A stretch of 64,000 bases of DNA from Sinohyriopsis cumingii (Eukaryota > Mollusca > Bivalvia > Unionida > Unionidae). Below the pieces are notes generated by a model. It did not search any database and was not told the origin of the DNA. It saw nothing but the letters and a program-made list of their open reading frames with translations. Each line of letters starts with the position of its first letter. Position 1 is the first letter of the stretch. Position numbers and translations under genes: made by a program. Below, piece by piece: positions 14,169 through 56,703 of this stretch. Location of the stretch: positions 73,947,244 through 74,011,243 of the forward strand of contig CM068827.1 of the NCBI GenBank assembly GCA_028554795.2, given 5' to 3'.

Positions 14169-14537
14169 GCATGTGTCTAAGCAAACATATGTAAAGATCA
14201 GGGTGGAAAATCATTTAAGGAAATGCCTCATACACCTGATCTGGTGGTGATGTAGGGGAACATGTGAAATCCTAACAAATTATGCTCACTAAAAAACTAT
14301 ATATAATTATCCTGTATATAATTAATGATCAGATCGAGTTTGCAGCTGTGTTCAGATATAATTTAAGAGGAATAATATATTTAAATATTCATTGGAATTT
14401 CAAAATGATATTTATCTATTAGACTAACTATTCTGGATTATTGTGAACCCATTCAAAGATATTCTGGACTGCATCATTGTGGTATATCAGAACATTCAAG
14501 ACTACTGGAATTCATTCAGAGTTTTCTATATTTTCTT

Positions 14538-31491: not shown

Positions 31492-34400
31492 TCATGACGT
31501 TTGAGTGTTGTGTTGTTCGTCCGTCGAGTCGACGAGGGCCACTCTAGTCATCCGAGGGTTGGTGGGGCAGGTTCTGTTCTGTGCGTGCGCAGGTGGCTGA
31601 TGAGGCCAATCCTCGCACGGAACGTTCGTTTGCATGAGTGGAACATCTTCAGGAGGGTTGATGGCATGTGCTTTTCTGGCTTGCCTCCTCAGCTCTGCAG
31701 CTGCTGTCCTGATAGATTCATACAGCTTGGGGCCTTTGTTCACGGAGGAACGCCAGATGACTCGATCGCTGGCTGTTTGCTTCCAGGAATCAGGGTTTAT
31801 GTTGAACGCTTTCAATGCAGCTTTCATATTGTCTTTGAAACGTTTCTTCTGACTTCAGTGGGATCGCTGTCCTTTCTGTAGCTCGCCATAGAAGAGTCTA
31901 TTAGGCAGCCGGTGTTCTGGCATGCGTACAACATGTCCCGCCCAGCGTAGCTGGGACTGCATCAGGATGGTGTTGATGCTGTGTAGACCTGCTTGGGCGA
32001 GTATCTCAGTGTCTGAAACCTTGTCCTGTCACTTGATGTTGAGGATTTTCATGAGACTTTGGTGTGAAAGTGGTTCAGCTTCTTGATGTGGCATTGGTCC
32101 ACATTTCGAATGCATAAAGTAGTATTGGGAGACAACTGCCCTGTAGACCTTTAGTTTGGTCTGGATGCTAATGCCTCTTCTATTCCAGACGTTGGCATAC
32201 AGTCTGCCGAAAGTTGAACAGGTTTTGGCAATGCGGAGGTTCATTTCTTCGACAATAGTGACGCTCTGTGAATGTGAGTTTTTGGCCGTTGACGGTGATG
32301 TTGGGCTCAACATAAGGCTTTCCAGTGGCCGGCTGATTCAGGAATTCAGTTTACTTGGTACTGATGATGAGACCGAAGTTTGTGCAGGAGCTGGAGAACT
32401 TGTCATTGCTGTGTTGCAGGTCGAGTTCTGAGCCAGCGTTGAGGGCGCAGTCAGCATCAAATAAGAATTCTCTGATGGTGTCTTTCATAACTTTGGTTTT
32501 CGCTTGAAGCCTTCCGGGGTTGAACAGTTTTCGATCTGTACGGTGCCTGATGCTGACTCCAACATCTCCGTCTCTGAAAGCATTAGTCAACATGGCGGAG
32601 AACAATAAACTGAACAGTGTCGGTGCCAGAACACAACCATGCTTGACGCCATTGGTTACTGGGAATAGTTCAGATGTCTCTCCATTGTTCTGGACTCGTG
32701 CCTGCATGCCGTCGTGGAAATGCTTCACCATGGATATAAACTTTGTAGGGCACCCGTACTTGGTCATTTCCTTCCACAAGCCTTCTCTGCTGACAGTATC
32801 AAAGGCCTTTGTCAAGTCGACGTAGATGGAAAAGAGGTCGGTTATTGCTCTTGACATTTCTCTTGTCGATGGTCCCATGTTCTTTTTTGGAATCAACACT
32901 GGTTGTCTGCCTGGAGTCCCTGGTCAAGGTTAGTAGTGAGCCGGTTCAGTAGGATTCTGGAGAGTATATTTCCTGTGATTGAGAGCAAGGATATACCTGG
33001 TGGTTGTCGCAGTCCTGGGGGATCCCTTTGAGCTTATACAGGTGGATTATGGAAGCGTCGTTGAATTCCTGGGGTATCATCTATCGCTGCCACATCAGTA
33101 AAAACAGTTGGTGCAGACTTTCTATCAGGGATGTGTCCCTTCCTTGTAGACTTCAGCTGGGATGGAGTCTGAACAAGGGGCTTTTCCACTGGAGAGCAGA
33201 CGTATCACTTTCTGTGTCTCCAGCAAGATTGGGGGTCATCCAGTGCTTCGTTGATGGGTAATTGGGGGAGATGACCGATGGCTTCATTGTTAATGGGTGA
33301 AGGACGATTTATGACGCTGTCAAATTGTTCATCCCAACGTTGAAAAATCTTCTCTTTTTCAGTATTTAGTGTGTTGCTGTTTGCGCTATGAAGGGGGATG
33401 ATCCAGATGATGTAGGCCCTTACACTTATTTCAGGGCGTTGTAGAAGTTCTTCATGTCATGTCTGTCTGTGTAGCACTGGATCTCATAAGCTTTGTTGCT
33501 CAGCCATGCGTCTTGCACTTGACAAAGTTTCTGCTGTACAGTTCTGCGTACATTGTTGTACGCATCTTTCCTGGAGGTGGACTTGGGGTTGTTGAGGTAA
33601 GTTTGGTGGAGGAGGTGTTTCTCATCCAGCAACTGCTTGATCTCTTCGCAGTTCCCATCAAATCAGTCTTTGTACTTTCTGGCTAAGGGTTCTAGGATCT
33701 CCGAAGCTGTGCTTTAGACCAGCTCTCTGAATGCCGCCCAGTCGGTCTCCACATTCTGATTGTCCAGAGGGATGGATTTCAGACGAGAAACTGTTTGGTA
33801 CTGGTACGTGTCAGCTTGGTGATGTTTAGTCGTTTAGAAGCCTTCTTTCCCTGCGGACGTCTTTAGGGATGACTGTGGATGTTGAGCTTGATGATGATGA
33901 GGCGGTGGTCTGCCCAGCAGTCGGTTCCGCACAAGGGCATGGTCACACGCACATACTGCCTGTTCCTCTTCCTGACAATGACGTAGTCGATGAGATGCCA
34001 ATGCTTAGAGCGAGGGTGCATCCATGACGTCCGGATTCTGGTAGGAGGCGGAAGACTGTATTTGTGATCAGCAATTCATGCTCGGCGCAAGCCTGGAGCA
34101 AAAGGAGACCGTTGCTTGCTGTTACAGTGACCCACTCCATACTTTCCTAGCACTCAATCCCGGGCAACGTGATCACTACCGACTCTTGCATTGAAGTCGC
34201 CAAGAATGACGAGCTTGTCAGCTATTGGAATGTCATCAATGATGGAGTGAAGATCCTCATAGACTTGACCTTCACTTCATCCGGGTTGGTCAATGTTGGA
34301 GCGTAGCAAATGATGATAGTAAGATGCTTTCTTCCAGACAGGAGGTGGGGGGGGGGTTCATGGTCATGAGTCTGTCATTTACTCCATTGGGATGTCCAGC

Positions 34401-35764: not shown

Positions 35765-35802
<38 letters not shown>

Positions 35803-36785
35803 GTTTCTCTAACTGTCAATTCCTAAAGCCGCGAACAAGATATTTTTATTGGCCAAAGACACGCTAAGTCGTATCAATAAATTGTTGTCGTAGCAGAAGA
35901 AACCTGTGCGGCGTGACCAGGTCTCGCCATGTTGATTCTCTGGAAGCAAGACCTACAAACGTTGTTTTCCCCAAGCCACAGAATTTGCAACCGCTGCATT
36001 TCAGGCTTTCGCGTTAGCGACAATACATTCAAACGTTGGTGGAATTTTACATCAGGATTCCTGTGCAATGTCCAGATGACCTCAAGTATTACTTCTGGCT
36101 GAATGTACGTTGACGTCCGTAATATAATCAATTCTATTTGTCATAATATGCAACATCGTTTGATCAAAAATGTCCGACTCTGATGAAAATGAAGCCGCCG
36201 TTATTTGTGACTATAACTATTTTGAGAACGTGTATTTGCAATTCCATACAGACCATACAGATATATAAGAAACTATCGGATCACAGATAAATTGGCACGC
36301 TTTGAAGAAACGGCGATTCAACGAGATCCATGACAGATTATCACGCTAAACGTACCTAGAAGACACAACTTTTAACAGGTTCGACTACGTCTTCCAAGTC
36401 ATATTTCTGATGATATATGCCAGATAAGACTGCTAGGAAGAAGACACGAACCAGCAAGAAAACACTAGAGGGATACGAGAGAATTATTTCTCAGTACCTA
36501 CCATTAGCAATAACTGTAGACTAGGAAATGTCTTCTGAATGTACGTTGTCTATTTACGTTTTTATTTACTGGACTTTGGTCTGCCTGCGTTTGTTCGTTT
36601 TGGTTTGACCATTCCTAAGCTAAGCTGGTATTTAAAGCCGGTAGCACCTCTAACAAAATCTTTGCCTATGCATTGTATCATTCAGGTTAGCTGAATTGCT
36701 GCATACTCATCAAACCTAAATTTGTTACATTTCTCGTTTTTTCGTTATGTTGGACAGTCTCTATATGGTCACTGTCACGACTACT
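34686..36785. other. Non-coding flank left of the virus-like element
   Basis: Contains a (GA)n run at 35769-35799. An 85-codon minus ORF (35874-36131) and a short plus frame from 36171 beginning MSDSDENEAAVICDYNY are open but unrecognised. The plus frame, with later RLSR and TYLED segments in shifted frames, could be an old transposase N-terminus, which I cannot confirm. No helicase, integrase or ATPase motif was found here. Confidence 0.4.
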
Positions 36786-39076
36786 TTAAATGTTTCTTGG
36801 TATCAAGTTGTTTGTCCAAAGGATTATATGGTCCGGTATAGGATCATGCACAGATGGTGCGTTCGACATTTCTGATAATTCTGATTTCCAATAATTATCC
36901 TTAATTGTAACATCAGCGGATTCACAATATTCATGTAACATCTCCGCTTTTATTCTCCACAAACTCCATGATTCATCGTAAAAGTCTTCGACTTTCTTTG
37001 TAAAACGAGCCAGTGATTCTAAGTATCTTCTATTGATATAAAATGAATCCGTTGAAACTCTAACTGCGGTGTCAGGAAATCGATTTATCATTGATAGCAA
37101 ATTTATAGAAACATAAGCCAGCATCGAAGATCTTAGATGTGTGTATTGAGGCGATTCTCCGTCGATATAACTTACAACTGTGCCCAACTTTTTCCCGTCG
37201 GACAAGTAAGCATCCTCCCGATTACAAAATATATTTCTCGCAACGGCATCAGCAATTATAAAATCCAATTCAGCATCATCGATAATCAGTCGCGAGTGAT
37301 GTAGTTTATGATCATATGCAGCACCTTGAGTAAATTTACCGATTATTCTTCGTCCGAGATCTTTTGCTATTTTTTCACTATTGCTAAGTTTAATCTTGAG
37401 AATTTTAGGAGCTTCTTTAATAATGACATCCATGGGAGTATTTGGACTCTCTCGTGCATACTCGCTAATGACTTCATCTACACTGATACGCTCCGGTGTT
37501 GGTAACCAAACTGAGGTCTGCGGTCGATATGATATGATTGCTTCACTGACAGTCAACGATACCAGTATTCGGCTGTCAAGCATATATCGCAATAACACTA
37601 TTGGTACCCAGCGCTTTTCACTGAAGTGTCTGCCAAACCAAACATAACAGCACGGATGAAGTCCCGCAGCAAATTCAATCGAAGTTACACGAGCAAATCC
37701 TGTCAAGTCAAAGTCGGGTAAAGGACCGTTTATAGCAACTCGTGTCATCGAGTTCGTGGGATGCCCAAATCGCTTAAAGTATTCGCGGCACTCGCCCATC
37801 CCGAGAAAGCTTCCCGGATAACACGCGATCATATCCACGGAAACCATATGCCGGTAGTCATACCGGGTATTCCACAGCCCGCCATGTCCATACTCGACAC
37901 AACTTAATTGTATATCCGAGAGAAACTGACTTGGTTTGGTCTCCATGAATTTCTTTCTCTTGCAGCGTGAGCGGCAACACTCGGAATTGTAAAACAATTA
38001 ACCAATAACTGCTCGGTGTTTTCTGAATATTTTTCTGCGAGTTTTTTCATTTGTTGTTGCAACGACTCCGTCCGGTATAATTCACCGTTGGGTTTTACAA
38101 ATTGATCATACTCGGAATCTTCGGAACTTTTAAACAACCACATCGACACAGGGTCGGTTTTGCTTATCTGCTTGATAGCATCAAATATATTTCCCTGATA
38201 ATATTTCACAACACGATCCCGCGGAAATATCGTAACTGCGTTAGTCCAAGCATGAGCGTTATGATCAATGATATTTATTGGAGCCCCGTATCGATTATAT
38301 TTCGATTTGTATAATACTTCCTTTGTTATCGTTGTTACGGTTATGGGAAATCTTAATGCGCTTTCTAGCTTGGCAACATCGTTTATTGACGCTCCTGTGT
38401 GTTTGACCCGCTCAGCCGACGCTGTTATCTTGGACTGTCTTAACGCAGTCAAACCGTTTCGGCGCATCGCATTTTTAAAATGTTCCATTACTCGCTCGGC
38501 TACACAATTCAGCGCCAACGACGAAGTCATTGACGTAGTCGTCGACGACGTTCTCATCGGGGTGAGTTTATCAATTTTTGGTTTTTTTATTGGATAGATT
38601 CCATAAATGACTGCGGTCACAGGATACGCTCAAGCGTAATATGGTTTATCAATCTCGGTCAGCATTCCTGGTTTGGAATCTTTACTTAACAGAATGGTCT
38701 TTCCGCTGGCAAGAACAGGGTCGAGTTTGTCACGGATAACCCACGTATCGGAATCTGCTTGCACAATAAATTTTATTCTGAAAAAATATTTCCGACCACT
38801 TTGATGTTCATCAAGGGTGAGATAATCAATAATTGTTTTTGCTCGTGCATCATTCATTGTAGCATCGATGACTTTGTCAACGACATTGACAGAATCATCG
38901 CGGATAATTTTAAATGATGACCACACGTGAGATGCGCCGTCGTCGCGGAATTCTTTTTTGGCATTCCTGATAATATTAAATAGATCAGTCAGGGATTGTC
39001 GTCGTAAGTCCCGGGTTAGTCTGTCAAGATCGAATCTCCCGGCGCCAACTGCAGATAGCCTCGAAAACTTCTCCAT
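36786..39076 (-). pseudogene. polB: Family B DNA polymerase, probably protein-primed type, broken
   Basis: Three minus-strand frames make one broken gene: 39076-38630 (148 codons, closed by TGA at 38632-38630), 38620-37904 (same frame, directly after that stop) and 37997-36786 (frame shifted, 403 codons). The last frame holds the palm: motif A as SVDMIACYPGSF (D55, Y60, P61), motif B region as GKFTQG (220-225) and motif C as STDSFYI (315-321), where the catalytic second Asp is kept and the usual first Asp is Ser. The middle frame has NIIDHNAHAW, a signature I associate with a polymerase family in invertebrate elements. Related proteins can carry a C-terminal helicase; here the frame ends without one. 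Upstream of the ATG is a TATATATAA stretch shared with the divergent gene at 39123. Confidence 0.8.
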
Positions 39077-39122
39077 GTTATATATAAGACAAATATTTAA
39101 ATAAGAAATATTATATATACAA
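39077..39122. promoter_or_regulatory. Bidirectional AT-rich promoter between polB and the Cys-rich gene
   Basis: The 46 bp between the divergent ATGs hold ttatatataag on one side and attatatatacaa on the other, a nearly symmetrical pair of TATA-like boxes within about 10 bp of each start. Similar boxes precede the plus-strand ATGs at 39430 and 41057. Confidence 0.55.
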
Positions 39123-39404
39123 ATGAATCATTGCAAGTGGTTAAAAGTTGGATCTGTAACAGTCTGTAATAAATCCTGCAGGAAGGAATTCTGCGGTGAA
39201 CACCTACAAAGCATCAAACGAGGAAGCACAGGACCAATACCATGCCTTTGATGTGTTATTGGGGTCAGAAGTAAAACACAGTTGTGTGCGAGTTGCGAAG
39301 GAAAGCGATACCGTGAACTCAAGCGATATTACAATAAAAAAAATAATGGAGATGCGCTGAAATCCGAAAGCGATTATTTAAATAAGTTTTCAGACAAATT
39401 ATAA
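39123..39404 (+). pseudogene. Small Cys-rich (zinc-binding-like) protein, in-frame stop
   Basis: ATG at 39123 opens a 94-codon frame ending in TAA at 39402, interrupted by TGA at 39249-39251. Spaced cysteine groups (HCKW, TVCNKSCRKEFCGEH, PCL before the stop, then C and QLCASCEGKRYREL after it) look like one or two zinc ribbons, followed by a basic K/N-rich tail. It lies 46 bp from polB in divergent orientation, so a DNA- or RNA-binding role alongside replication is plausible but inferred. The frame continues with similar composition past the stop, so I treat it as a mutation. Confidence 0.55.
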
Positions 39405-39429
39405 ATTAGACAAATATATTATTATATAA

Positions 39430-39856
39430 ATGAGCCAAGAATTTGTTCCACATCCAACCATTAAAAATTATGAAGCATCTCGCGAGGGAATAGTCAGACA
39501 CTGTATATTGAAAAAACCAGTTGGTGTTGTTAATAATTCTGGTTATCTTAGATTCGGCACTGGGAAAAAAACATTATTATAATCACAGGGCCGTGTATGA
39601 GTGTTTCCTTGGAGAGATCAAAGACGGTCTTGTGAACTGTCAATTCGGAAACACTGGTTGTTATAGTAAATACGCCAAGAAGGTTGTTTCCATAAATTTA
39701 AATACAAAAGAACAAAAAACATTTCATTCGATGAATGCAGCCAGTAAGCATTTTGATATTTGTGTGGCTTCAGTACGAAAAGTCGCAGAAAATGTATATA
39801 AATCCGCGTTGTCAAAAAAATATAACAGAGAAAGGATTACTTTTTATTATTGTTAG
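39430..39856 (+). pseudogene. HNH/NUMOD-type endonuclease, frameshifted
   Basis: The ATG at 39430 is preceded by tattattatataa. The first frame reads VPHPTIKNYEASREGIVRHC and GYLRFGTGKK, like the N-terminal NUMOD4-type segment (Y-x-S-x-x-G-x-V-R). At an A tract (39565-39571) the frame changes and continues as HYYNHRAVYECFLGEI, the HNH-like His block, then VVSINLNTKEQKTFHSMNAA, a NUMOD1-type DNA-recognition helix repeat, and ends ITFYYC at 39856. Proteins of this architecture are typical of phages and large DNA viruses, as free-standing homing endonucleases or transferred HNH genes. Only the frame change is damaged; no other stop was seen. Confidence 0.7.
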
Positions 39857-40417
39857 GTACTTCTATAATCCTGAAGTTTTTTAATGGGAGATAACTCTAC
39901 AGCGACTGCGTAAAAGTCAATGATACAATTATTTCCCCTTGTCAGGAAGTGTTGTGCACTCCGTGACAGGTAAATTTATCCAGCGCGGTATTTTTTTTAC
40001 AGCCAACTGTATACACACTGCGTCACAGTCTCGCGTTTGTCAGTCTTTTCATAAATCCAGTTTAGAGCTTAAATTCAGAATTTGTTAACTGTCTGTTACC
40101 ACTACAGAGGTAAATCGTTTACAGGTAACACAACGAGCAGACGGTTTTCTGTGTACAAGGAAGTAAATAACTTCCCTTTATTCCTCGACAAAGGCGTAAT
40201 TGTCTATTTATCTTTTTTTTGCGGATAAAATCTTTATTTTATTACACTTGTTCGGGGTTATGGTTCATCTGTATTTTCCACATGATCATATTTAAGAAAA
40301 AAACAAATAAAACATTTTAAACAAGTCACGCCCATCGCGTGAGCTATTTTTGAGCTTCCAAGTATCAGTCGGTTTATATACGATACGATCCTGTTAGAAG
40401 ACGGAGTCTTCGAAGTT

Positions 40418-40515
40418 CAACAGCAATCAATACCATCCCGTCATATCCGCCCATGGCGGATGCTTTTTGCGTCCATCCAGGGGTTGATTTTCGGGATGGT
40501 ATTGTCCCGCTGTTG
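40418..40515. repeat. Long hairpin with a nested smaller hairpin
   Basis: Outer arms: 40418-40440 (caacagc and ataccatcccg) pair with 40492-40515 (cgggatggtat and gctgttg). The loop contains the palindrome atccgcccatggcggat at 40445-40461. Confidence 0.8.
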
Positions 40516-40601
40516 AGTGTAGAAAATGACTCCGTTAGGATAAGTCGTCTTACTATATGTTGTGCTGTCCTTAGTTACTACTATGTGTCTGTACAATACT
40601 A

Positions 40602-40794
40602 CTGTAAGCTTGCTAAAATGCGGTGGCAATTTAGAAGCTTTACAGATGTAAATACTATATGTCTACAATACTACTGTGTAAGCTTGCTAAAATGCGGTGG
40701 CAATTTAGAAGCTTTACAGTCCTAGGATAAGTTAGAATTAAGTTATACTACTGTAAGCTTGCTAAAATGCGGTGGCAATTTAGAAGCTTTACAG
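40602..40794. repeat. Three copies of a 44-bp imperfect palindrome
   Basis: Copies at 40602-40645, 40674-40719 and 40751-40794. Each begins ctgtaagcttgctaaaatgc and ends caatttagaagctttacag, so the two halves are near reverse complements. The spacing is 72 and 77 bp and the linkers are partly related (tacaatactact). Confidence 0.92.
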
Positions 40795-41056
40795 ATGTAA
40801 ATACTACATGTTGTGGGTTGTCCCTATATGAACCTTGCTAGCATATCATCAGGTAAGCTAGGGGGTTCATTACGGGGAATGTCTCGTCTCTCTCGCAAAC
40901 ACACCCTCTGGGCTCTCTAGACTGTTATTTGACAGGTTAGGGGCTCACATGGGGGTCGTGTTTCCGCTCCTGAGTTTGGTAGGATGTTATAAGACACCCT
41001 AGAGGCTCAAGGAGATGTGATGTTTTTTCTTTTAAATATATAAATATTATATATAT

Positions 41057-41482
41057 ATGAATTACGAAAATATCAATAATGTGAATGATGCTATTAAAAA
41101 TTTAGAAGAACAAGGATTTAATTTATCACTAAATCCTGAAACAATTATGTCCGATTTTGAATCATTATATGAAGCTAAACGCGCAGGGCGTTATATTCTT
41201 CCTGCTTAATATCGATTCTTAAAAAAAATTCAAAATAATTTGTATAAACCGCTGGTCACAGTAGAAGAAGAAGCACAAATAAATGGTTTTGTTTCACTAT
41301 CTCGTGCAATTGAAAAGATTAGGTTGGCATTGGCAGCCGAGTATGAAACAAAAAAGATAATAAATACTCGCGTTAGAAAATTGAAACATTGTATGTCCCT
41401 TGACGAAGTCAAGGATGACAAAGTTAATGACGAAGTCAAGGATGAAATTAAGGACGACGAGGAAGTAAATACCTCACCCTGA
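41057..41482 (+). pseudogene. Unrecognised 142-codon viral gene with acidic C-terminal repeats, in-frame stop
   Basis: ATG at 41057, preceded by attatatatat. The frame is interrupted by TAA at 41207-41209 and ends at TGA 41480. The first part (MNYENINNVNDAIKNLEEQG, SLYEAKRAGRYILP) and the second part (VTVEEEAQINGFVSLSRAIE, NTRVRKLKHC) look like one small helical protein. The C-terminus is a run of VKDD/VNDE/VKDE repeats. Expression would follow the same TATA-like box as the other plus-strand genes. I do not recognise the family. Its place beside the replication genes suggests an early or accessory function (inference). Confidence 0.5.
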
Positions 41483-41722
41483 TGAAATCAGGTACTTGGA
41501 AATGAAATCGAAAGTAAAAAAAAGTAATATTTTTTTTTTACTTCCCCTTGACAAAGTCAAGGATGAAATCAAGGTGACATTACTGCTGTCGTCGTCAGTG
41601 ACATCACTGCTATCACTGCTATCATCAATGAAATCATCATCACTGTCGTCGTCGTCGGTGACATCACTGCTATCATTGCTATCATCAATGAAATCATCAT
41701 CACATTTTTTCTTCAAGGACAT
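41474..41722 (-). CDS. Possible short Asp/Ser-rich acidic protein over a 60-bp repeat
   Basis: An 82-codon minus-strand frame starts MSLKKKC after taatattatattataata and runs into FIDDSNDSSDVTDDDD and a second copy FIDDSSDSSDVTDDD. The DNA at about 41585-41704 is two copies of a unit of about 60 bp rich in tcatca/gtcgtc, which also leaves the plus strand open. The start context resembles other late genes of the element, but low complexity makes coding uncertain. Confidence 0.3.
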   Translation of the reverse strand: MSLKKKCDDDFIDDSNDSSDVTDDDDSDDDFIDDSSDSSDVTDDDSSNVTLISSLTLSRGSKKKILLFFTFDFISKYLISSG

Positions 41723-41789
41723 TATTATAATATAATATTATTAATTGGAAATCGTTTCACGATTGAAAGTCTTAAGACTTGGAAATCGT

Positions 41790-43197
41790 TTACGATTTCA
41801 CAAGGAGACTAATATGTAGTGTTTCATTTCGCAAATCAAGGGGATTCCCAGATTGGTCTGTCAGTGTGAAATTTATTCTGGTCAGCCATGGATTATGACA
41901 TCGTAGATAGACCGGATTGATTGGCTCTTGCACAATCAGAAATCCAGGTGGTTCTTTCGGAGTAAATGAATAAAGAATAAATCCTTGCTGGGCTTGATTT
42001 GATAATGTCGTGTCTGTGCTGTAACTGCCATCGATGACATCACACACAAGATTGACCGCGACCACTGAAGTTATATTTACGATGCCCGGGGATACATGAC
42101 GGCCTTGCCCTTCGGTGTTATTGTTATGTCTGAGGATAGTTGGGTCCGGTAGTGTTTTTCTGTGTTGTGCGTGTATGTCATCGAAGGATTCATTGATGAA
42201 GTCGGTGACGGATTTTCTTAACTCGGGCACGTTATACCAAGGAAGTTTAAAATTTGTTAGATTCGCCTCTGGTATTCTAAAGAACTTTAAAAAATTTTGC
42301 TTACTACGATGTATGTCGGTATCAGTATGATCAATTGTTGCCTGAATTACTCGCTGATATAAGATATTCCATGTCATATGCGAGCTGATTTAATATTTCA
42401 ATCCGCTTAATAATTTCGCTACGTAGCGCTATATCAAAAAGATGTTCTTGGAAGAACCACCGCAGTTGTGTTAGTTGTGTTTTATGTTCTTGATTAATTT
42501 CTTTAAAATATTCAATAATATTGTTTAGGGTAATAATCAAAGTTTCAGGGCCCCGGGTAAAACACCACTGAACAGTGTCCTTGTCGGTGAAGTAAAAATG
42601 ACGACTAGACGTTGACCCTTTTATGTGATCCAGACGGTCTTTGTATTCTGGTGTAATTTCATGATATGATTGTTTGTCAGTGACATAATCAGACTTTTTA
42701 GGTTCTGGTGGTATTGGTTGTGCTGGTGGAGCGACTTCAGGCCATCCTAATACTGTTCGGATTGAACTATTATATATATCCACCGCGTAGTCTGGGGTGT
42801 TTATTTCAATGGCAGAAGACAGCGTTGGCTCATGAACAGTTATTGCTATTTTGGATTCCTTTGTTGTAATATTTTTTATTCGACGTTGTAATTCCTCATT
42901 GATTTCTTCGATTTGATAAGACCCGGTTGGTAACCCAATGACATTCCAGTCTGGCGTGCCATCGGGTTTATTTTTATATGCAAACACAAACGAATTATTT
43001 GCTGGCAATCCACCAAACGATTTTGATCTAATATTGGGCCAACTGTGATATACTCGTAATTGCGCTAACGCGATTTCGCTTACTGGAATCGCAGTTGGAA
43101 AATTAATACTGAATTGTGGCTTAGTTGATGTTACTGTTAATAAAGATGTTCGCGCCGGGCTTGTATTTGCGACTATCTGCTGAAGTAATTCCGTCAT
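41790..43197 (-). pseudogene. Penton-like minor capsid protein, in two overlapping frames
   Basis: The N-terminal frame (43197-42331, 288 codons) has PTAIPVSEIALAQLRVYHSW, the aromatic strand NNSFVFAY and GLPTGSYQIEEINEELQRRI, the pattern of penton-like proteins in Polinton/adintovirus-type elements. The C-terminal frame (42377-41790, 195 codons) ends with TRINFTLTDQSGNPLDLRNE then TLHISLLVKS, the matching final jelly-roll strands. The frames overlap by 47 bp with a frame change. I read them as one broken gene, although two overlapping genes cannot be excluded. The ATG follows agataaata. The first 77 nt overlap the end of the next gene upstream. The product would form five-fold vertices and bear the spike. 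Confidence 0.7.
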
Positions 43198-43726
43198 TAT
43201 TTATCTGCTGTCGTTTCAAATCGAAGTTCTTTGTGTAATCGTTGTACACCCCTGCCATCTGCGCGAATTCGGAATCTGATATTGTTGTATCGTCAAGGCT
43301 GGATGATATCAACGATGACAATTTCGAATAGGTGCTTGTGGCCGCGCTGTTTAACTTTTCATATTCGTGCAATTTTGTTAGCGCACACGATGATATTTTT
43401 TTCGCAATTATATTAGTAACTCCTGCAATTGTCGTTGACGTTGAAATTGTGATTGTAATCGCGATTGCAGTTGTCACCGGAGTTAACGCAGACAATAGCA
43501 CCCCAGTAGATGCAACTACCGCGGATACCGAATACACTATTGTGTCTAACATGGTTACACGCCGTTTGTATTTTTTTATCTTTGTTGTGCACTTGTCAAT
43601 AATATCTTTTAACTCTGAATGCCATTCGCGTACTTGATCATATCTATATTGCTGCGCATCTAATGTTGTCGTTGATGCTGACTTCAAAACACTTTGTGTT
43701 AAAATGCTTGCATTTTCTGATATCAT
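43121..43726 (-). CDS. Virion-associated-type protein with a hydrophobic hairpin, intact
   Basis: 201 codons, start context gtaaaataataaa before the ATG at 43726. A basic amphipathic N-terminal part (CTTKIKKYKRRVTMLD) leads into a long hydrophobic segment at about residues 61-107, enough for two membrane helices (VYSVSAVVASTGVLLSA and AIAITITISTSTTIAGV), then a helical, Ser-rich tail ending in a soluble region (TISDSEFAQMAGVYNDYTKN). Proteins with this layout accompany capsid genes in related invertebrate elements; their function is not known to me. It is one of the few unbroken genes here. It starts 10 bp after the spike stop and overlaps the penton-like start. Confidence 0.6.
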   Translation of the reverse strand: MISENASILTQSVLKSASTTTLDAQQYRYDQVREWHSELKDIIDKCTTKIKKYKRRVTMLDTIVYSVSAVVASTGVLLSALTPVTTAIAITITISTSTTIAGVTNIIAKKISSCALTKLHEYEKLNSAATSTYSKLSSLISSSLDDTTISDSEFAQMAGVYNDYTKNFDLKRQQINNDGITSADSRKYKPGANIFINSNIN

Positions 43727-43735
43727 TTTATTATT

Positions 43736-44862
43736 TTACGCGGTAACCAATTGAGGCGTTTCAGCTACAAATTCTAAACACCTCCAGTAAGATGTTGCGG
43801 TTAATTTCTTGTCGGCGGCTTCCAGTATAAATGTTTCTTCGGTTTCCTTGTTTAATATGATAGTCACAACCCCGGAATGCTTATCGGTGGAATGTCTCCA
43901 GGGATATGTTGTGAAGATTTCAAATTTAGCGGCACTGAACACAGACAGTCTATACACTCCAGTGGCTGTTGCTGTATATTTGATAGTATTATTTTGTTTG
44001 GACCATGTTGCGAATCCCGATGATACCGTGTATACTATGTTGGTGACATGCCCAGGAGTAACTCCAGTGGGGACTTTAATCAAACTGGTTTTGCTAACGA
44101 TCTCAGGAATCTCCGCTACGATGTTTTGCTGTGTTTGTTTGATCGTGTCAATGTTATTTTGTATCAACGCGATTTGATCTGAAATACTTCTATCTGTTCT
44201 GACTACACCTAACCGGGCATTAATCGCGTTGACTTCGCTGGCGTTACCAGTAAGTTTTTCTTTGATATCAGAAAGTTTCATGTCGATGACGGGAGGAGTT
44301 CCAAGGAACTTATCCGTGGCATCATCGGTTTTTTGAAAGTTTCTTCGAAGTCTTGTGAACGCGTTTACATGAACATCATACTCTACCCACAACGTTGTTA
44401 GTTTACCGTCAACGGCGCTAGCGCTTGCGTCAACATATTGTTTGTTAGTGGCATCTTCCGGCGAGGTTGGAATCGCTAACGCGGTTATTTTGTTACCACT
44501 GAGATTGAGTTCACCTGTCATTGTATCACCGGTCTTCGCTACACGTTCCCCTGCAGCTTTTTGTGTGTCATCTCGAAGCGCCGCGATTGATATCAGCGAA
44601 TCTCTGATTTTTCCGCTGTCAGTGAACACAGGAATGTTACCCGGAGTAGCTACAATAACCCTACGAATTATTTCATGCCATTTGATATCGCTGGTTTTTA
44701 GTTTTCCGTGCCGGTCCTGAAAAATAAGAACCTCATCTGGGTCTATCCCGGTTAACGTTAAAAGATTATCGATTTCATCTTTGGTCGCATATTTTGATAA
44801 ATCCACATCGGCGCGTTTTTTGTTTTTGTTTCGAGAAGAGATCTTTCGTAAATATCAACCAT
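43736..44862 (-). pseudogene. Spike (fibre-like) protein with phage tail-fibre repeat, frameshifted near the start
   Basis: The long frame (44806-43736, 356 codons) contains VAKTGDTMTGELNLSGNKIT then AIPTSPEDATNKQYVDASAS (residues 89-130), the classic tail-fibre repeat of bacteriophages (GDTMTG...NKI...P....DA.NK.YVD). It is followed by coiled-coil-like segments and a C-terminal beta-rich domain (TATATGVYRLSVFSAAKFEI, TYPWRHSTDKHSGVVTIILN) suited to a trimeric receptor-binding head. The likely true ATG is at 44862, overlapping the protease stop as TAATG; its frame (MVDIYERSLLETK) changes at an A-rich tract before DLSKYATKDEIDNL. The position next to protease and penton-like genes fits a vertex spike. 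Attachment to a host receptor is inferred. Confidence 0.78.
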
Positions 44863-45346
44863 TATTTGATAGGAAACTGTTTAAATCGACCTATGGTATA
44901 CTCGTGCACGATTTTGTGAGGAGAAATCTTTGATTTCGAGATCGCATCAAGAACATTTAATACTTCACGGCCACATATCGGAGGATCGGTCAGTGTTTGT
45001 ATTGGTAACGTTGAATACCAAACCTTTGTCGTTGACAGGGGGATGTTTTTTGTATATAGGAGAAATTCAACTGGTGGTGCTAACCCATACGAATCAAAAT
45101 AGATAATTCCACGTGGATCGATCGCGTAAGCAACCCAGTGAGTTCCTGGACCATCGCTGTTATCAAGATTAATAATTCCTGTTTCTGGATTGCGTGGTCA
45201 TTGTGGTAATTGATCTCGCATAAAGACGCCTCTGAAATTTTTTATATTTAATTGTTTAGCAGCATCAAGCAATTCAAAATTTGACATCGGTGTGAAAATG
45301 CTAGCATTGAAAACACTTTGTGTTTTTAAAACCTTTTTGGTACCAT
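44862..45346 (-). pseudogene. Adenain-type cysteine protease, with in-frame stop
   Basis: From an internal ATG at 45287 the frame runs to TAA at 44862, broken only by TGA at 45200-45198 (codon 30). Catalytic blocks are clear: GPGTHWVAYAIDP (His50), IIYFDSYGLAPP (Asp65), a Gln at position 97 and PPICGREV (Cys105), in adenovirus-protease order. The segment before the stop includes SNFELLDAAKQ and FRGVFMRDQLP, as in Polinton-type proteases. Coding-like sequence in this frame continues upstream (SVFNASIFTP) towards an ATG at 45346 after a frame change, so the gene probably starts there, 22 bp after the pVI-like gene. It would mature the virion proteins. At about 140-160 residues it is shorter than adenain (about 204). 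Confidence 0.85.
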
Positions 45347-45368
45347 GATGGCGGAGTTCCTGGGAGTC

Positions 45369-45764
45369 TTAGCCCTCGTCCCTTTTTTTGTATCCTTTTC
45401 CTGTGGCTTTCTTTAGTGCCATTCCAGCAGCGGTTCCAACTGCTCCTAACGCAGCGGCTTTAGCGACTGCAGGGGCAGCAGCAGCTATCAACGCTGGTAT
45501 CGCTGCAAGTAATGGAAATATTCCACCGGTTTTAGCCATATGTTTGACAGCTGCAGGAGAGAGATCAAGTCGAACTCCAGTCTTTGCTTGCTTTGCTTTA
45601 TTAAGATGATTAATCTGTGTTTTAGTCAGCGATAACTTGTTTGGACCACCCGCTAGCTGATCGTATTTAAGTGTTATTGCTGTTCCACATGTGCTCGCGT
45701 TCTTTGATTGCAATTTCTTAGTCTGACCAGGAGTCAAAGTAACACTAACTTGATTGTATGACAT
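45369..45764 (-). CDS. pVI-like minor capsid/membrane-active protein, intact
   Basis: 131 codons from the ATG at 45764, chosen over an upstream in-frame ATG (45815) because it follows cactaataaaata, as in neighbouring genes, and because the longer form would overlap the hexon end. The N-terminal half has Thr/Leu/Lys repeats (VSVTLTPGQTKKLQ, NKLSLTKTQINHLNKAKQAK, VRLDLSPAAVKHM). Residues 81-118 are a hydrophobic Ala-rich helix (PLLAAIPALIAAAAPAVAKA), with a basic tail GKGYKKRDEG. Such proteins are common beside the hexon in invertebrate Polinton-like elements, and the adenovirus counterpart by position and hydrophobicity would be pVI. Membrane activity is inferred. Confidence 0.65.
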   Translation of the reverse strand: MSYNQVSVTLTPGQTKKLQSKNASTCGTAITLKYDQLAGGPNKLSLTKTQINHLNKAKQAKTGVRLDLSPAAVKHMAKTGGIFPLLAAIPALIAAAAPAVAKAAALGAVGTAAGMALKKATGKGYKKRDEG

Positions 45765-45792
45765 TATTTTATTAGTGATTGATCTAATTGTG

Positions 45793-47175
45793 TTACATGT
45801 TTTGTACTGGTGCATCAGCGAATATCATTCGGCCGCCAGCACCTTCAAGCAACATTGCTTTGTCGGAAAGTATGACCGCGATTGCTCTGTAATTAGCTAT
45901 AGCTCCTACGTCTCTATTCACGGTAGCCCGAAAGTGTATATCAACGACAGACTGTCTGGTTAAATCAAGACGCTCTAACGAGAAGTATTAGATTGGATAA
46001 TGAGATATAAAATCCAATTGTGATATTTGCAAACCAGTATCGATATTCAGATCACGCGCTAGATATTTCGTCAATCGTTGATATGCACGTGCAACATGAT
46101 TATTACCAAAATCTAACAGTATGTTCTCAGACGGTTCTTGATGCCCGTTTATTCTCAGAGAAACGTCAGTGATACCAAGTTGATCAAATATCATATGCGA
46201 ACGTGTTTCATTACCCACCCGTGCAACATCCTGAAGAGCAATGAAAATATGTCGCGGCGCGGCAACCCTCTGCTGTGATGCTATATGCCATGTGAATAAA
46301 CCGTTATTGGTACTTTGAGCACTATCTGTGGTTGTTGTAAGCCACGATAACAACACTTTACCACCTTGATCCATAAAAGAAAGCAGTCGCTGTTCTTCAG
46401 TAATTGCAGGAGTCATTACCGGCATCCACAGTGATAGTTTTGTTATGTTTACCTTACCAGCGTCACCTAGAGGTCGCCATATAGCATCATTGTCGTTGGC
46501 TTTTCTAACAAGCACAACCGTATGTTTTGCTCCAAAAATTACCTTTCTGACATCTCTGCAAAATCCAAAGATGTACGACAGCGGAATGGCACATGAAAAA
46601 TTTCTACGATTACCTTTCAACATTTGTCTACGTGCAGCGAAACCTAAATTAAATTCTGTATTAGCACCGTGAACCACCGGATTCACATCAACGTCAGCTG
46701 CGTTGGCAAAGTTTCTTGGTCGTCTAATATCGTACTGATCACTGTTAGGAAAATTAGAAGTGTCCTTGGCAAACATCATTGATGGACCAGATAATCTTGT
46801 ATAATCATCAGAATATCTTGCTAGACCAATTATTGTTGTAGCAACATCGACATCCTACTGAATCGATTCGATATTTTTTCCATCAATCATGTAGACAGCA
46901 CTATCAAACAAGGCCATAATTCCGTTATTGACAAAACCGATTTTAACACTGGGTCCGTATTCTGTATCATCTGTTTTTATAATTTCTCCTTCTGCTTCAA
47001 TAAATGCTTCAGTGGGCAGGAAATATCTACTTGTATCTTGAACCTGAAGTTCAATTCGTCCTCGTTTATTTGGCTCTCGTGCGTCATAAGAATAATACTG
47101 ATAATCACGCACTGATTCATTTTTAAGAACCGGTTCGTCTATGTCGAATGCTGGGTCGGATTCCCGTTTAAACAT
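45793..47175 (-). pseudogene. Hexon-like double jelly-roll major capsid protein, two in-frame stops
   Basis: A single frame of 461 codons from the ATG at 47175 (after cttttataataaa) to TAA at 45793, interrupted by TAG at 46857-46855 and TAA at 45990-45988. Blocks seen: SRYFLPTEAFIEAEGEI and NNGIMALFDSAVYMIDGKNI in the first jelly roll, IPLSYIFGFCRDVRKVIFGA and NITKLSLWMPVMTP in the middle, and a C-terminal strand set after the second stop (LTRQSVVDIHFRATVNRDVG, NYRAIAVILSDKAM). These match the pattern of hexon-like capsid proteins of Polinton/adintovirus-type elements. The frame is continuous on both sides of each stop, so the stops are point changes in an otherwise complete gene. The usual length is about 450-600 residues. 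Confidence 0.85.
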
Positions 47176-47256
47176 TTTATTATAAAAGTCATCGTCTAAA
47201 ACGAAGACCACTTCCCGCCATCAAACTTGTGTTTATTTGTTCAGCCCCTTGATTTA

Positions 47257-47628
47257 TCAAGGCTGTTTTTTATTTGCAGCTTCATTTATTACTTTACTAA
47301 CATTTGCAGGCATATCTGCGGTGGCTGGTAATTTTACCGGTGGTGGACCCCCTTTGGTTCTGCGCATTAATCGTGCTAGTCTGTCCTTGATTGCCAGGAA
47401 TGCTTTACTGGCAGCGCTACCAACAGCGCCAGTAGCTTTATCTTTAATAACATCAATGGCTTTCATCGATAATTGTTTTGCGATTGGTATTGCTTTAGGT
47501 GCCATCCTCGCAAATAAACCGCGAACAACATCGCCTAATCCCTTTCCATAAGTCATCCTGTATACGGGTACTCGTGAATTTACCACCCTGACCATGACTG
47601 GTCTACGATGACAATTGTGTACGATCAT
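47257..47628 (-). CDS. Small basic virion protein (core/pX-like), intact
   Basis: 123 codons, ATG at 47628 after taattaaataaa. Rich in Lys/Arg (HNCHRRPVMVRVVN, DRLARLMRRTKGG) with a Gly/hydrophobic stretch GKGLGDVVRGLFARMAPKA. It lies immediately upstream of the hexon-like gene, where adenoviruses keep small basic core proteins (pVII, pX). DNA condensation or capsid attachment is an inference from charge and position, not from detectable homology. Confidence 0.6.
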   Translation of the reverse strand: MIVHNCHRRPVMVRVVNSRVPVYRMTYGKGLGDVVRGLFARMAPKAIPIAKQLSMKAIDVIKDKATGAVGSAASKAFLAIKDRLARLMRRTKGGPPPVKLPATADMPANVSKVINEAANKKQP

Positions 47629-47653
47629 TTTATTTAATTAGTTATTTATTTAA

Positions 47654-47757
47654 CTAGTCGCTGTCCACGAGTTCATCAATAAGTTCTCGGTAGATGTGAG
47701 TATCCATGATGCCGCCGCGAAATAATCGCTGAGAGATATCAGCTGCTTCATTAATTA
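47654..47757 (-). CDS. Very short acidic ORF between the coiled-coil and basic protein genes
   Basis: The frame directly follows the TAA of the coiled-coil gene in phase and reads INEAADISQRLFRGGIMDTH then IYRELIDELVDSD to TAG at 47654. No ATG is in frame before the internal Met, so it is either a short peptide with a damaged start or a former C-terminal extension of the upstream gene. Confidence 0.3.
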
Positions 47758-47758
47758 T

Positions 47759-48803
47759 TTATGGTGAGTTATTTCCGGCACGTCTTCCTCCGATGAGAAC
47801 TTCTAGCCGTGATACGTCATTGATGATATTATCAGAGCAGGGAATAAAATCACCCCCCAAACCACTTCCAGTAGCGCCGGTATCAAATATATCGTAAAAC
47901 TCTTCTTCTTCATCTGGATGCTCCAATGGCGGTGAAGGTTCCTGCGTTTTTTGTTTCAGTTTTCGCTTTTGTTCTTTTTCTTTTTGTTTTTGTTCTTTTT
48001 CTTTTTCTTTTTGTTCTTTTTCTTTTCGCTTTTGTTCTTTTTCCTGCTCTCTTTGTTCTTTTTGTTTTTGTTTTTGTTCTTGTTCTTGCTGTCTTTGTTC
48101 CTGCTTTTTTTCTTTTAATGTTTTATCATAATTTTCTGCCCCTTCTAAATAAATCTTATAACCAGGATCTTCCTTGTCTATAAGATCAACATCTTGATTT
48201 ATTTTAAACAACCAATCTCTCCATGTGCCACTACTTACTTTAACGTATCCGGGTTTCAAAAATTGATTTCTGGAAGAAAAACGTTCGACAGCAAACTCAC
48301 CAAACTTGGCTTTGTCCTGTGTAGTTTTCAATTTATATTTTTTAATTTCTTGTATACCCTCTTCAGCAAATTTCTCCCTAAAATCGATTACTTTCTTTTC
48401 TTTTTTTGGGGTTTCACCAACAGCACCTTCAAGTATTTCTTCTCCTTCATCTTCAAGTTGTGGTTGAGCTGCAACTATATCAGTTGGAAGTTTTTGTAAA
48501 ATCTTTTTTGTTTGTTTGGTTCTTCTATCAATTTTTTCAGTCTGCTCTGCGGTTTGTTTTAGCACTGGAAGAATACCCTTTTCATCTCCCAATAAAGCTC
48601 TTTCAGTGATCGCCGCAGCTTTTTCGGTAGCTGTTGTAACGGGTTTAAATAATTCTTCTGCACCTGTCGCAAATTCAACTTGTGCTTGTTGCCGCGCTTG
48701 TAATTTTTGTCTTACACTATCTCGTACAGGAAGAAATTTTTTTTATTGCTTCTAGTCGCTCTCGAGCTAGTCTTGCAGAATGTGCTTCTCCAATGTTGGC
48801 CAT
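47759..48803 (-). pseudogene. K/E/Q-rich coiled-coil structural-type protein, frameshifted near the start
   Basis: The ATG at 48803 (after gttaacaata) opens MANIGEAHSARLARERLEAI, which loses frame at an 8-bp A tract (48744-48737). The shifted frame then runs unbroken to TAA at 47759. The protein has an N-terminal helical region (DSVRQKLQARQQAQVEFATG), a middle segment with KLPTDIVAAQPQ and an aromatic part (PGYVKVSSGTWRDWLFKINQ), then 60-70 residues of nearly pure K/E/Q repeats (about 48150-47950) and an acidic tail (EEEEFYDIFDTGATGSGLGG). Low complexity prevents family assignment. Its position upstream of the hexon-like gene and late-type start context suggest a virion or scaffold role (inference). 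Confidence 0.55.
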
Positions 48804-48894
48804 TATTGTTAACTTAAATTTTTAATTCACAGCAGCAGAAACTGCGACGACAAGCAAACTCTGCCAGGGACTTTCACAGAAATGCTAGCATTTC

Positions 48895-49138
48895 AGCAGC
48901 AGAGAAAGTGACGACGCCACCGAGTGTTTTCGCGAGATACCCCTGTGCGGACAGAAATAGTTGTATAGGTAGATATTTTCATGAGATAACCCTTCTAGTC
49001 AGCAGAGAAAGCCTATTTTGTCATGTTTTTCTGACTAGAAGGGTTTATTTTGTGAAAAATAATATCTCTATCTAAAATGTCTTCGATAGAAGGTTCTGTT
49101 AAGCGAAATACTTTGTGGGATTCACTTTCTCTGCTGCT
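48895..49138. repeat. Imperfect palindrome of about 244 bp at the right edge of the virus-like element
   Basis: Outer pair: agcagcagagaaagtga (48895-48911) with tcactttctctgctgct (49122-49138), perfect over 17 bp. Inner pair: aacccttctagtcag (48988-49002) with ctgactagaagggtt (49031-49045), perfect over 15 bp. Between them are further partial matches (tagatattttca with tgaaaaataatatct). A separate palindrome aaatgctagcattt lies just outside at 48880-48893. Confidence 0.85.
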
Positions 49139-49313
49139 CCTACAGCTCCAACCGCAAGTAGTGAGGAAAAAGGTAAGATGCCGCCATGTTTCTTAAGTTG
49201 TGCTGCAAGCAAATTAGATATTATGCATTTCCTGCTGCGTTTTGTACTCTTACTTTGTCATGCTTAAGTTTTGGTAGCATAAATGACAGCTGAGGTGCTG
49301 AAAGCTGTACTGA

Positions 49314-49318
<5 letters not shown>

Positions 49319-49361
<43 letters not shown>
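49319..49361. repeat. (GA)n microsatellite
   Basis: Pure ag dinucleotides. The minus ORF across it (Leu-Ser repeat) is an artefact. Confidence 0.97.
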
Positions 49362-49364
<3 letters not shown>

Positions 49365-49453
49365 ACTTCTTGGTACGACATTTTTGTAAAAATTGAATGA
49401 TTAGACGAAACTCTAAGCAAAAATATTTTTGTTTTCTGTACCAATGTCCTCAG

Positions 49454-49547
49454 CCGCTCTTAGCCTTTTCCGTAGCGCCTGATATTGCACCAGAGGCAAG
49501 AAAACCAAGTGCCGACGAAATTGTTGGACCCCATACCGTAAATAAAG
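49454..49547 (+). CDS. Candidate internal exon, plus strand
   Basis: Acceptor tgtaccaatgtcctcag, 94 nt open in one frame (PLLAFSVAPDIAPEARKPSA then DEIVGPHTVNK), donor aaag|gtaatg. The product is unrecognised and no partner exon was found. Confidence 0.35.
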
Positions 49548-49989
49548 GTAATGTTGCTGGGAAGCTTCCTCCCATGCGAGATATTTATTTTGATGATAAT
49601 TCCAAAGTTAACCTTTTACTTTACTACCAATATTCGTCTGCAAACAAGAAAAGCTTTATAAGGCAGCAACAACAAAAATATAATAAAAAACCTTATTCTC
49701 GCTTTTACCTATAACTTTTGTTCCAGATTTGTGTATTACATTTTTGGACCAGATCCCGCCAAAATATGTGACAAAACTGATATTTGGCATAGTGTCTCCG
49801 CACGTAGCTCACTCAAACTTCCTTCACCGCGATTATTTTTGACAGTGCATGTCATCGCGCACTTGGCTTCCGTTGTAGTTGCAATTTCTTTGAAAACCTC
49901 TTTGACTTATGCGGAGACTCTAACTACGTATGCCACATTTACACCCCACCCCAATTTGTTGTTGTTGAGATACGCAATGCTATATTAAT

Positions 49990-50690
49990 ATTGAAGATGA
50001 ATATAACTACTTAGGTCTTAGATTTAACAAGAAGGGTAAGTTCTCCAACGGCCTGCATAATCTAGCATCCGTATTTAATGAAGGTATGCATTTCTTTAAA
50101 AATCGTATACACTAACTAGATTTGCCTATTGATAGTCAGCTGTAATCGTACGATCAAACCATTGAACCGAGTTTAGCATAACTGAGATTTGGACGTTTGT
50201 GAGATTTAATATAGTCCAAAAAAATCATCTTTTTTTCATCAGAAGTATATTGAATGTCCCAATAATGTATCAATCTTTATATGGTATAGGACGAAATTGG
50301 TTGTTTCCCCTTAATTATCATCATTAAAAGTTGCACGATTAACTACTGAGCAAAACTGGTTAGTGGTTATGAAGGAAAATATCTTATCGTATGAATTTTT
50401 TTCATATGCAAACAATTTGGTCATCATTCCTATGCTAATAAATGGTTACACGAAGTAAAATCGTTATTCGACGTTGTTGGGTTAAGCTACGTTTGGAGAA
50501 ATCAAAGTTTTGTGTCAGTTAAATGGGTACGAAAATCCAAAGAACAGCAACTACAAGATCAACTCATATATAAGTTTAGATCAGTCAATCTCAAGAAATC
50601 GGCGATGCATATCACTATCTTCTGTCACGTTCTTATTTTCATGACGAACGACACAAATTTATACCTCATTTTTACACTTCAAGGACTAAT
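49990..50690 (+). pseudogene. LINE reverse transcriptase C-terminal fragment, heavily decayed
   Basis: Plus-strand frames read YLGLRFNKKGKFSNGLHNLA then SVFNEGMHFFKN, followed after a stop by LDLPIDSQL, the region that follows the reverse transcriptase thumb in many LINEs. A later frame has FVSVKWVRKSKEQQLQDQLI then YKFRSVNLKK. Many stops; no catalytic core. Confidence 0.55.

Positions 50691-52447: not shown

Positions 52448-56703
<4,256 letters not shown>

What the first reader, a model, noticed from the sequence alone, without database searches (positions are those of the whole stretch)
36786..49140. Fossil of an adenovirus/adintovirus-like dsDNA virus with a near-complete virion gene set
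Hexon-like, penton-like, pVI-like, basic core-like, adenain-type protease and spike genes sit in one block with a family B polymerase. Gene density, overlaps and absence of introns contrast sharply with the flanks. No integrase, packaging ATPase or helicase was seen, so this may be a lineage with a different gene complement from Polintons, or a truncated copy.
Basis: partly seen in the sequence, partly recalled or inferred. Interest (0 to 1): 0.92.

Follow-up and report, generated by a model that had tools for sequence, protein, structure and literature searches.

The report
Broken mussel virus with hybrid genes
A decayed DNA virus sits in what looks like a freshwater mussel genome; its shell genes resemble those of adenovirus-like animal viruses, while its copying enzyme looks like a kind described from viruses of algae and ciliates, a pairing that may bridge two virus groups.

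Summary
About 12 kb of one strand carries 8 stop-free frames of at least 195 codons (0.005 expected; 1 in 51.6 kb of flank). They are remains of a small double-stranded DNA virus: double jelly-roll major capsid protein (PF21738, E 4e-20), adenain-like protease, penton-like protein, spike-like and core-like proteins, and a replicase. Of nine minus-strand genes, five are clearly broken and a sixth lacks a start codon. The interpretation needs changing. The replicase does not look like the exonuclease-bearing PolB of Polintons and adintoviruses: 8 of 80 relatives, one of them in the mussel Sinanodonta, run from the same palm-like region into a superfamily 1 helicase, as in the published 'Tlr1-like' pPolB-helicase of polinton-like viruses. 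The window copy stops just before the helicase, so its absence is a truncation. No packaging ATPase, integrase or terminal repeat was found. Capsid and replicase each group with unionid mussel sequences. Best reading: a degraded endogenous virus of a mussel-associated lineage pairing an adenovirus-like virion module with a polinton-like-virus replicase. The two modules were not seen together in any relative. Structure prediction and own-genome searches gave no answer.

The parts
36815..48803 (-). whole recognisable viral block (minus-strand genes)
   Evidence: ORF statistics; tblastn of relatives; ATG-led frame at 48803; end of replicase homology near 36815
47759..48803 (-). charged coiled-coil-like gene; ATG-led frame at 48803 changes frame close to its start into the 327-codon frame 47759-48742, which has no ATG start listed
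   Evidence: no convincing Pfam or PHROG match
47257..47628 (-). small basic pVI-like frame, open, 123 aa
   Evidence: no Pfam or PHROG family; name by position and composition only
45793..47175 (-). double jelly-roll major capsid gene, full length with two in-frame stops
   Evidence: PF21738 E=4.3e-20; single tblastn alignments over 47175-45796; stops
45369..45764 (-). basic, alanine-rich core-like frame, open (131 aa from the inner ATG)
   Evidence: no Pfam family
44862..45287 (-). adenain-like cysteine protease gene with one in-frame stop
   Evidence: Peptidase_C5 E=0.02; PDB S273R E=3.2e-4; frame
43736..44854 (-). spike-like frame, 372 codons stop to stop, no ATG before 44521
   Evidence: PHROG tail fibre E=1.8e-5 over a short stretch
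43121..43726 (-). 201-aa frame with a hydrophobic stretch, open, unknown
   Evidence: only weak matches
41790..43197 (-). penton-like gene, split by a change of frame near 42360
   Evidence: P0153 (496 aa) aligns to both frames; 20 relatives; alignment A3
36815..39076 (-). replicase: terminal-protein/vOTU-like N-terminal part and palm-like part; one in-frame stop, one change of frame, 3' (helicase) end missing
   Evidence: 80 relatives; tblastn; motifs; helicase in relatives; helicase not in window
39123..39401 (+). cysteine-rich frame with one in-frame stop, divergent from the replicase
   Evidence: frames; read directly from the sequence
39512..39853 (+). NUMOD1-like frame (stop to stop)
   Evidence: PF07453 E=3.3e-4, 21.3 bits, just under its cut-off of 22.8
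41057..41482 (+). unknown frame with one in-frame stop
   Evidence: direct reading

Best explanation
The block is a degraded, truncated endogenous copy of a small double-stranded DNA virus of the phylum Preplasmiviricota, from a lineage associated with freshwater (unionid) mussels. In life its genome would have been copied by one protein that carries a terminal-protein/vOTU-like part, a protein-primed polymerase palm without an exonuclease, and a superfamily 1 helicase. Its shell would have been built from double jelly-roll capsomers and penton-like vertices with a spike, and matured by an adenain-like protease. Shown here: the open frames, the capsid family, the protease resemblance, helicase fusion in relatives, breakage, and truncation at the palm-helicase junction. 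Inferred: protein priming, palm and penton folds, mussel host of the window, and that virion and replicase genes belong to one virus.
For: PF21738 E=4.3e-20. 72 capsid relatives among 581 candidates, 61 of 72 with PF21738, three named ones from Unionidae. Protease. Penton: 20 relatives among 669 candidates, four named ones from Unionidae; an intact relative spans both window frames. Replicase: 80 relatives among 1842 candidates, 8 of 80 with precomputed superfamily 1 helicase domains; P0102 of Sinanodonta has AAA_30 at E=1.6e-12 behind the palm-like part. Motif A Asp in 32 of 34 covered rows, GKF of motif B in 42 of 42, motif C Asp in 35 of 39, and no Asp in front of the motif C Thr position in 40 of 40; this is the pattern that PMC11071308 describes for Tlr1-like helicases (section 10 read). 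Trees: window capsid in a 15-row set with Sinanodonta P0012, window replicase in an 8-row set with Sinanodonta P0073 and P0102, both SH-aLRT 100. Same strand and compact arrangement. Dispersed and LINE-like repeats in the flanks.
Against: No Pfam polymerase match; no PDB relative of the replicase profile at E<=1; profile comparison with phi29 and PRD1 polymerases not significant, and no better than a non-polymerase control. Penton profile: no significant match to PRD1 P31, PDB matches look irrelevant. Adenain cleavage sites are not enriched in the virion frames: 2 seen, 2.1 expected. Virion and replicase genes were not seen side by side in any relative; annotated Sinanodonta and Potamilus pieces carry distant locus tags. 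The 2.7-kb stretch between penton and replicase has no clear same-strand gene. No structure could be predicted.
Confidence: 0.72

Rival explanations
1. Two elements lie side by side by chance: an adintovirus-like virion block, and an unrelated Tlr1-type replicase element.
For: A 2.7-kb stretch with tandem repeats and no clear minus-strand gene separates them. Replicase relatives occur in coral, mycorrhizal fungi and bacterial/archaeal MAG records, whereas named capsid relatives are from mussels only. No relative with both modules was seen.
Against: Same strand, similar decay, and both modules group with Unionidae; the intervening stretch holds plus-strand frames that could be viral.
Confidence: 0.13
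2. A conventional adintovirus/Polinton copy whose polymerase is only unusually divergent, with integrase and ATPase lost by truncation.
For: Virion set with adenain-like protease and the order pVI-like, capsid, core-like, protease resembles adenoviruses (order recalled). vOTU-like Cys and His motifs also fit adintovirus PolB, which bears an OTU-like domain (PMC11071296).
Against: Relatives of the same clade run from the palm-like part into a superfamily 1 helicase; only about 143 codons lie between the vOTU-like His motif and motif A (positions), too few for an exonuclease domain by my estimate.
Confidence: 0.1
3. A contaminant or mis-assembled stretch, for example DNA of a virus of a protist living in the mussel.
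For: CpG observed/expected is 1.13 in 12 block windows against 0.61 in 50 flank windows (Mann-Whitney p about 1e-5).
Against: Stops and frame changes in several genes; relatives of capsid, penton and replicase are annotated in Unionidae assemblies, some on contigs over 100 Mb; nearer flanks also have CpG of 0.55-1.09 in 2-kb bins.
Confidence: 0.04

Closest known systems
Polinton-like viruses with a Tlr1-like pPolB-S1H replicase (Tlr1 of Tetrahymena, TvV-S1; PMC11071308 sections 10-11, PMC4642659 passages)
   Same: Palm with the first motif C Asp missing, vOTU-like Cys and His in front, superfamily 1 helicase behind the palm in relatives; double jelly-roll capsid
   Different: Mussel rather than protist association; adenain-like protease present, whereas PMC4642659 states that none of its PLV encodes the maturation protease; helicase lost in this copy
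Adintoviruses and metazoan Maverick-Polintons (PMC11071296 section 10 parts 1-2, PMC10120064 passages)
   Same: Animal-associated; hexon-, penton- and adenain-like genes; vOTU-like motifs in the replicase
Adenoviridae
   Same: Order pVI-like, hexon-like, protease (order in adenoviruses recalled); adenain-like protease
   Different: Different replicase; decayed and endogenous; extra core-like gene between capsid and protease
Transpovirons (PMC11071308)
   Same: Tlr1-like palm-helicase replicase
   Different: Transpovirons lack the structural module, which is present here
Gosseviruses (PMC10120064 passages)
   Same: PLV group reported to carry a cysteine protease
   Different: Found in oomycetes; no sequence was at hand for comparison

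Membership tests
Preplasmiviricota (small dsDNA viruses with double jelly-roll capsids) | Double jelly-roll major capsid protein | tested here: met
   PF21738 E=4.3e-20, 72.6 bits against a cut-off of 27; sequence profile only, no fold
Preplasmiviricota (small dsDNA viruses with double jelly-roll capsids) | Single jelly-roll penton/minor capsid | tested here: inconclusive
   Intact relatives found but no match to a known penton
Preplasmiviricota (small dsDNA viruses with double jelly-roll capsids) | DNA-packaging ATPase | tested here: inconclusive
   None in the frames scanned, no P-loop in the block; the copy is truncated
Tlr1-like (pPolB-S1H) polinton-like viruses | Palm fused to superfamily 1 helicase, no exonuclease | tested here: inconclusive
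   Palm-like part with matching motifs and helicase in same-clade relatives; helicase absent from this copy; no direct comparison with a Tlr1 sequence, no fold
Tlr1-like (pPolB-S1H) polinton-like viruses | vOTU Cys and His in front of the palm | tested here: met
   NCVAxR and HNxHA motifs in the window piece; in 14 and 25 of 80 relatives, many of which are fragments
Polinton-like viruses of Yutin 2015 | Lack of the maturation protease | tested here: not met
   Adenain-like protease present
Adintoviruses | rve integrase with chromodomain | tested here: inconclusive
   Not found in the frames scanned, but the copy is truncated. One of 70 short frames matched Tf2-1_C at E=0.0065, not followed up
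Adintoviruses | Hexon recognisable by BLASTp to adintovirus hexons | not testable with these tools
   No adintovirus hexon sequence was at hand
Adintoviruses | Adintovirus-type PolB with N-terminal OTU-like domain | tested here: inconclusive
   vOTU-like motifs present, but relatives are helicase-fused
Polintons | Terminal inverted repeats | tested here: inconclusive
   No exact inverted match of 11 bases or more between 35800-37000 and 48601-50200; 39 of 100 shuffles reached 11 or more. One end is lost, so this says little

The most novel reading that the evidence does not exclude
A distinct, possibly still circulating family of animal viruses in freshwater mussels that combines an adenovirus-like virion module (double jelly-roll capsid, penton with an insert, adenain) with a Tlr1-type protein-primed polymerase-helicase so far described from protist-associated viruses, bridging adintoviruses and polinton-like viruses.
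Probability: 0.45. Interest if true: 0.8.

Novelty: new variant of a known kind. Interest (0 to 1): 0.62.

Why it matters
Replication and virion modules of small dsDNA viruses are thought to be exchanged among polinton-like viruses, virophages and Polintons (PMC11071308). If confirmed, this would put the Tlr1-type replicase together with a protease-bearing virion module in an animal lineage. That gives a concrete intermediate for models of adenovirus, Polinton and polinton-like-virus evolution, and a viral lineage to look for in freshwater mussels.

Tried and rejected
Conventional Polinton/adintovirus PolB: rejected as the best reading because of helicase-fused relatives. HelPol, the exotic polymerase of PMC11071296: considered; not testable, as no HelPol sequence was at hand; that paper reports similarity of HelPol to cellular PolBc, and no Pfam polymerase match was seen here. 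Archaeal virus: one relative in genome contigs (1 of 36 matched stretches), a 3.2-kb contig of a Diapherotrites MAG whose matching frames are scattered; taken as a probably mis-binned fragment, which is inference. Relatives in IMG/VR: 7 scans, none confirmed. Capsid relative in phage records: none at E<=1. Adenain cleavage sites: not enriched. Terminal repeats and P-loops: none in the block (the two P-loop matches in the window lie outside it). (GA)n runs on both sides were considered as a target-site sign and dropped as common repeats. PDB matches of the penton profile (angiotensin-converting enzyme, E=0.0078; TFIID) and of the capsid profile (eS7, E=0.077) were taken as chance. Rows dropped before counts: the capsid tree used 39 of 72 relatives (those of 250 aa or more); alignment A2 used 42 of 80 replicase relatives; alignment A1 used 19 of 72; the replicase tree used all 80.

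Papers. PMC11071308: outline with abstract, sections 10 and 11. PMC11071296: outline with abstract, section 10 parts 1 and 2 of 3, passages. PMC12721341, PMC10120064, PMC4642659, PMC10294476, PMC10328495: passages only. PMC8502044 (adintovirus founding paper) is not held. Others: search listings only. That the combination is not in print rests on ten listing searches of an open-access library without most subscription papers.
Full report
What is there. The minus strand from 48803 down to about 36815 carries, in order of transcription: a charged coiled-coil-like gene, a small basic pVI-like frame, the major capsid gene, a basic alanine-rich core-like frame, an adenain-like protease, a spike-like frame, a 201-aa frame with a hydrophobic stretch, a penton-like gine (two frames) and, after about 2.7 kb without a clear gene on that strand, a replicase. 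The stretch between holds plus-strand frames: a cysteine-rich one starting at 39123, a NUMOD1-like one (PF07453 E=3.3e-4, just under its cut-off) and an unknown one at 41057-41482. Eight minus-strand frames of >=195 codons compare with 0.005 expected from 200 first-order Markov simulations and with 1 in 51,645 flanking bases.

State of the genes. The capsid gene spans its full length with two in-frame stops. The protease has one. The penton-like gene changes frame near 42360. The replicase has one stop, one change of frame and a lost 3' end. The coiled-coil-like gene changes frame close to its start. The spike-like frame has no ATG before 44521. The pVI-like, core-like and 201-aa frames are open. 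So five of nine are clearly broken and a sixth lacks a start. CpG observed/expected is 1.13 in 12 block windows against 0.61 in 50 flank windows. The difference comes largely from the left 22 kb (2-kb bins of 0.12-0.50); nearer flanks reach 0.55-1.09. Whether this means youth, lack of methylation or foreign origin is not decided.

Capsid. PF21738 (double jelly-roll-like) at E=4.3e-20. Among 581 candidates 72 proteins reach E<=0.001; 61 of the 72 carry PF21738; three named ones are from unionid mussels (Sinanodonta P0012 and P0072, Potamilus P0051), and most of the rest are unnamed, short-contig proteins. A tree of 39 of the 72 relatives plus the window piece puts the window in a 15-row set with SH-aLRT 100 that includes P0012 (quick method, no bootstrap). 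The PDB has no credible sequence relative, phage records none, and IMG/VR none in the four scans made with capsid queries.

Protease, penton, spike. The protease piece matches Pfam Peptidase_C5 at E=0.02, under its cut-off, and the viral cysteine protease S273R in the PDB at E=3.2e-4. The penton-like piece has 20 relatives among 669 candidates, four of them named from Sinanodonta or Potamilus. P0153 (496 aa) covers both window frames, and two short relatives (P0158, P0166) lack the central segment, as would fit an insert in a loop. That it is a penton is inference, partly from recall: Pfam, PHROGs, PDB and a comparison with PRD1 P31 gave no significant support. The spike-like frame has a short phage tail-fibre-like stretch (PHROG E=1.8e-5; PDB tail fibre only E=0.067).

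Replicase. The long piece (36789-37997) has no Pfam match but 80 relatives among 1842 candidates. Eight of the 80 carry precomputed AAA_30 or AAA_19 domains. For P0102 of Sinanodonta, hmmscan gives AAA_30 at E=1.6e-12 directly behind the palm-like part, and that part resembles Dda/RecD-like phage helicases. In the alignment of the window piece with 42 of the 80 relatives, motif A Asp is kept in 32 of 34 covered rows, GKF of motif B in 42 of 42, motif C Asp in 35 of 39, and the place where other polymerases have the first motif C Asp is never Asp in 40 rows (the motif names follow general knowledge of PolB). PMC11071308 (section 10) describes this for Tlr1-like helicases: first motif C Asp replaced, vOTU Cys and His in front, superfamily 1 helicase behind; its abstract adds that the exonuclease is lacking. 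NCVAxR and HNxHA motifs occur in 14 and 25 of 80 relatives, many of which do not cover the region; the window piece has both. About 143 codons separate the His motif and motif A (positions), which I judge too few for an exonuclease domain. Homology ends at about 36815, just before the Walker A loop of the relatives. A permissive tblastn with four helicase parts finds nothing in the window better than E=0.6, but finds them in the control L001 at E down to 9e-79. So the helicase is missing from this copy by truncation.

Against the palm reading. The PDB search with the replicase profile gave nothing at E<=1. Profile comparisons with the phi29 and PRD1 polymerases were not significant and scored no better than a non-polymerase control. 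The assignment rests on motifs, domain order and the published description.

Distribution. With all 80 relatives, the window replicase lies in an 8-row set (SH-aLRT 100) with both Sinanodonta sequences; a coral and four mycorrhizal-fungus sequences fall in the other 73 rows. Six proteins come from 'Candidatus Thiodiazotropha' MAG records. Capsid and replicase thus each point to mussels. That they form one virus is inferred from this window alone: annotated pieces in the two mussel genomes have distant locus tags, and no intact relative with both was seen.

Missing parts. No P-loop motif in any frame of the block and no exact inverted match of 11 bases or more between the edges; no integrase or ATPase among the frames scanned (20 short ones; one short frame matched Tf2-1_C at E=0.0065 and was not followed up). 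As the copy is truncated, these absences do not define the lineage.

Comparison. The virion module looks adenovirus/adintovirus-like; the replicase looks like that of polinton-like viruses and transpovirons. Yutin 2015 (passages) states that none of its polinton-like viruses encodes the protease. Bellas 2023 (passages) reports a cysteine protease in gosseviruses, and says that cnidarian capsid genes were the only metazoan ones outside the main Maverick-Polinton cluster. No paper describing this combination in molluscs appeared in the ten listing searches named in Tried and rejected.

Limits. The window's own species is not identified; 'mussel' rests on the relatives and on animal-type repeats in the flanks. 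The own-genome search did not complete and structure prediction gave no result.

Noticed in passing
window 7587-7903, 11579-11894, 12958-13228, 14536-14797: Dispersed repeat; its copy at 11820-11892 scores as tRNA-Pro, so probably a tRNA-derived SINE.
   Followed up: partly
window 32354-32923 (-): Reverse transcriptase fragment (RVT_1 E=4.6e-12), probably a LINE remnant in the left flank.
   Followed up: no
window 1323-3020 (-): 565-codon stop-free frame with no Pfam family, the only frame of 195 codons or more in the flanks.
   Followed up: no
window 1-22000 against 22000-64000: CpG observed/expected steps from about 0.12-0.50 to about 0.55-1.3 near 22 kb (2-kb bins).
   Followed up: no
window 1-562, 53904-54599, 40579-40811, 35768-35799, 49318-49362: Tandem repeats: 50-bp array at the left end, 46-bp array in the right flank, 74-bp array inside the block, and (GA)n on both sides of it.
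   Followed up: no
window 48830-49145: Short inverted repeats just outside the block, including a 15-base palindromic pair near 48986 and 49030 (read); possibly a foldback element.
   Followed up: no
L001 655-2844: Replicase relative with a helicase part, in scattered frames, on a 3.2-kb contig of a Diapherotrites archaeon MAG; probably mis-binned.
   Followed up: partly
proteins P0093, P0103, P0144, P0141, P0095: Relatives of the replicase in mycorrhizal fungi (Diversispora, Gigaspora) and a coral (Desmophyllum): the replicase family is spread well beyond mussels.
   Followed up: partly
window 43739-44854 (-): A phage tail-fibre-like stretch in the spike-like frame of a eukaryotic virus.
   Followed up: no
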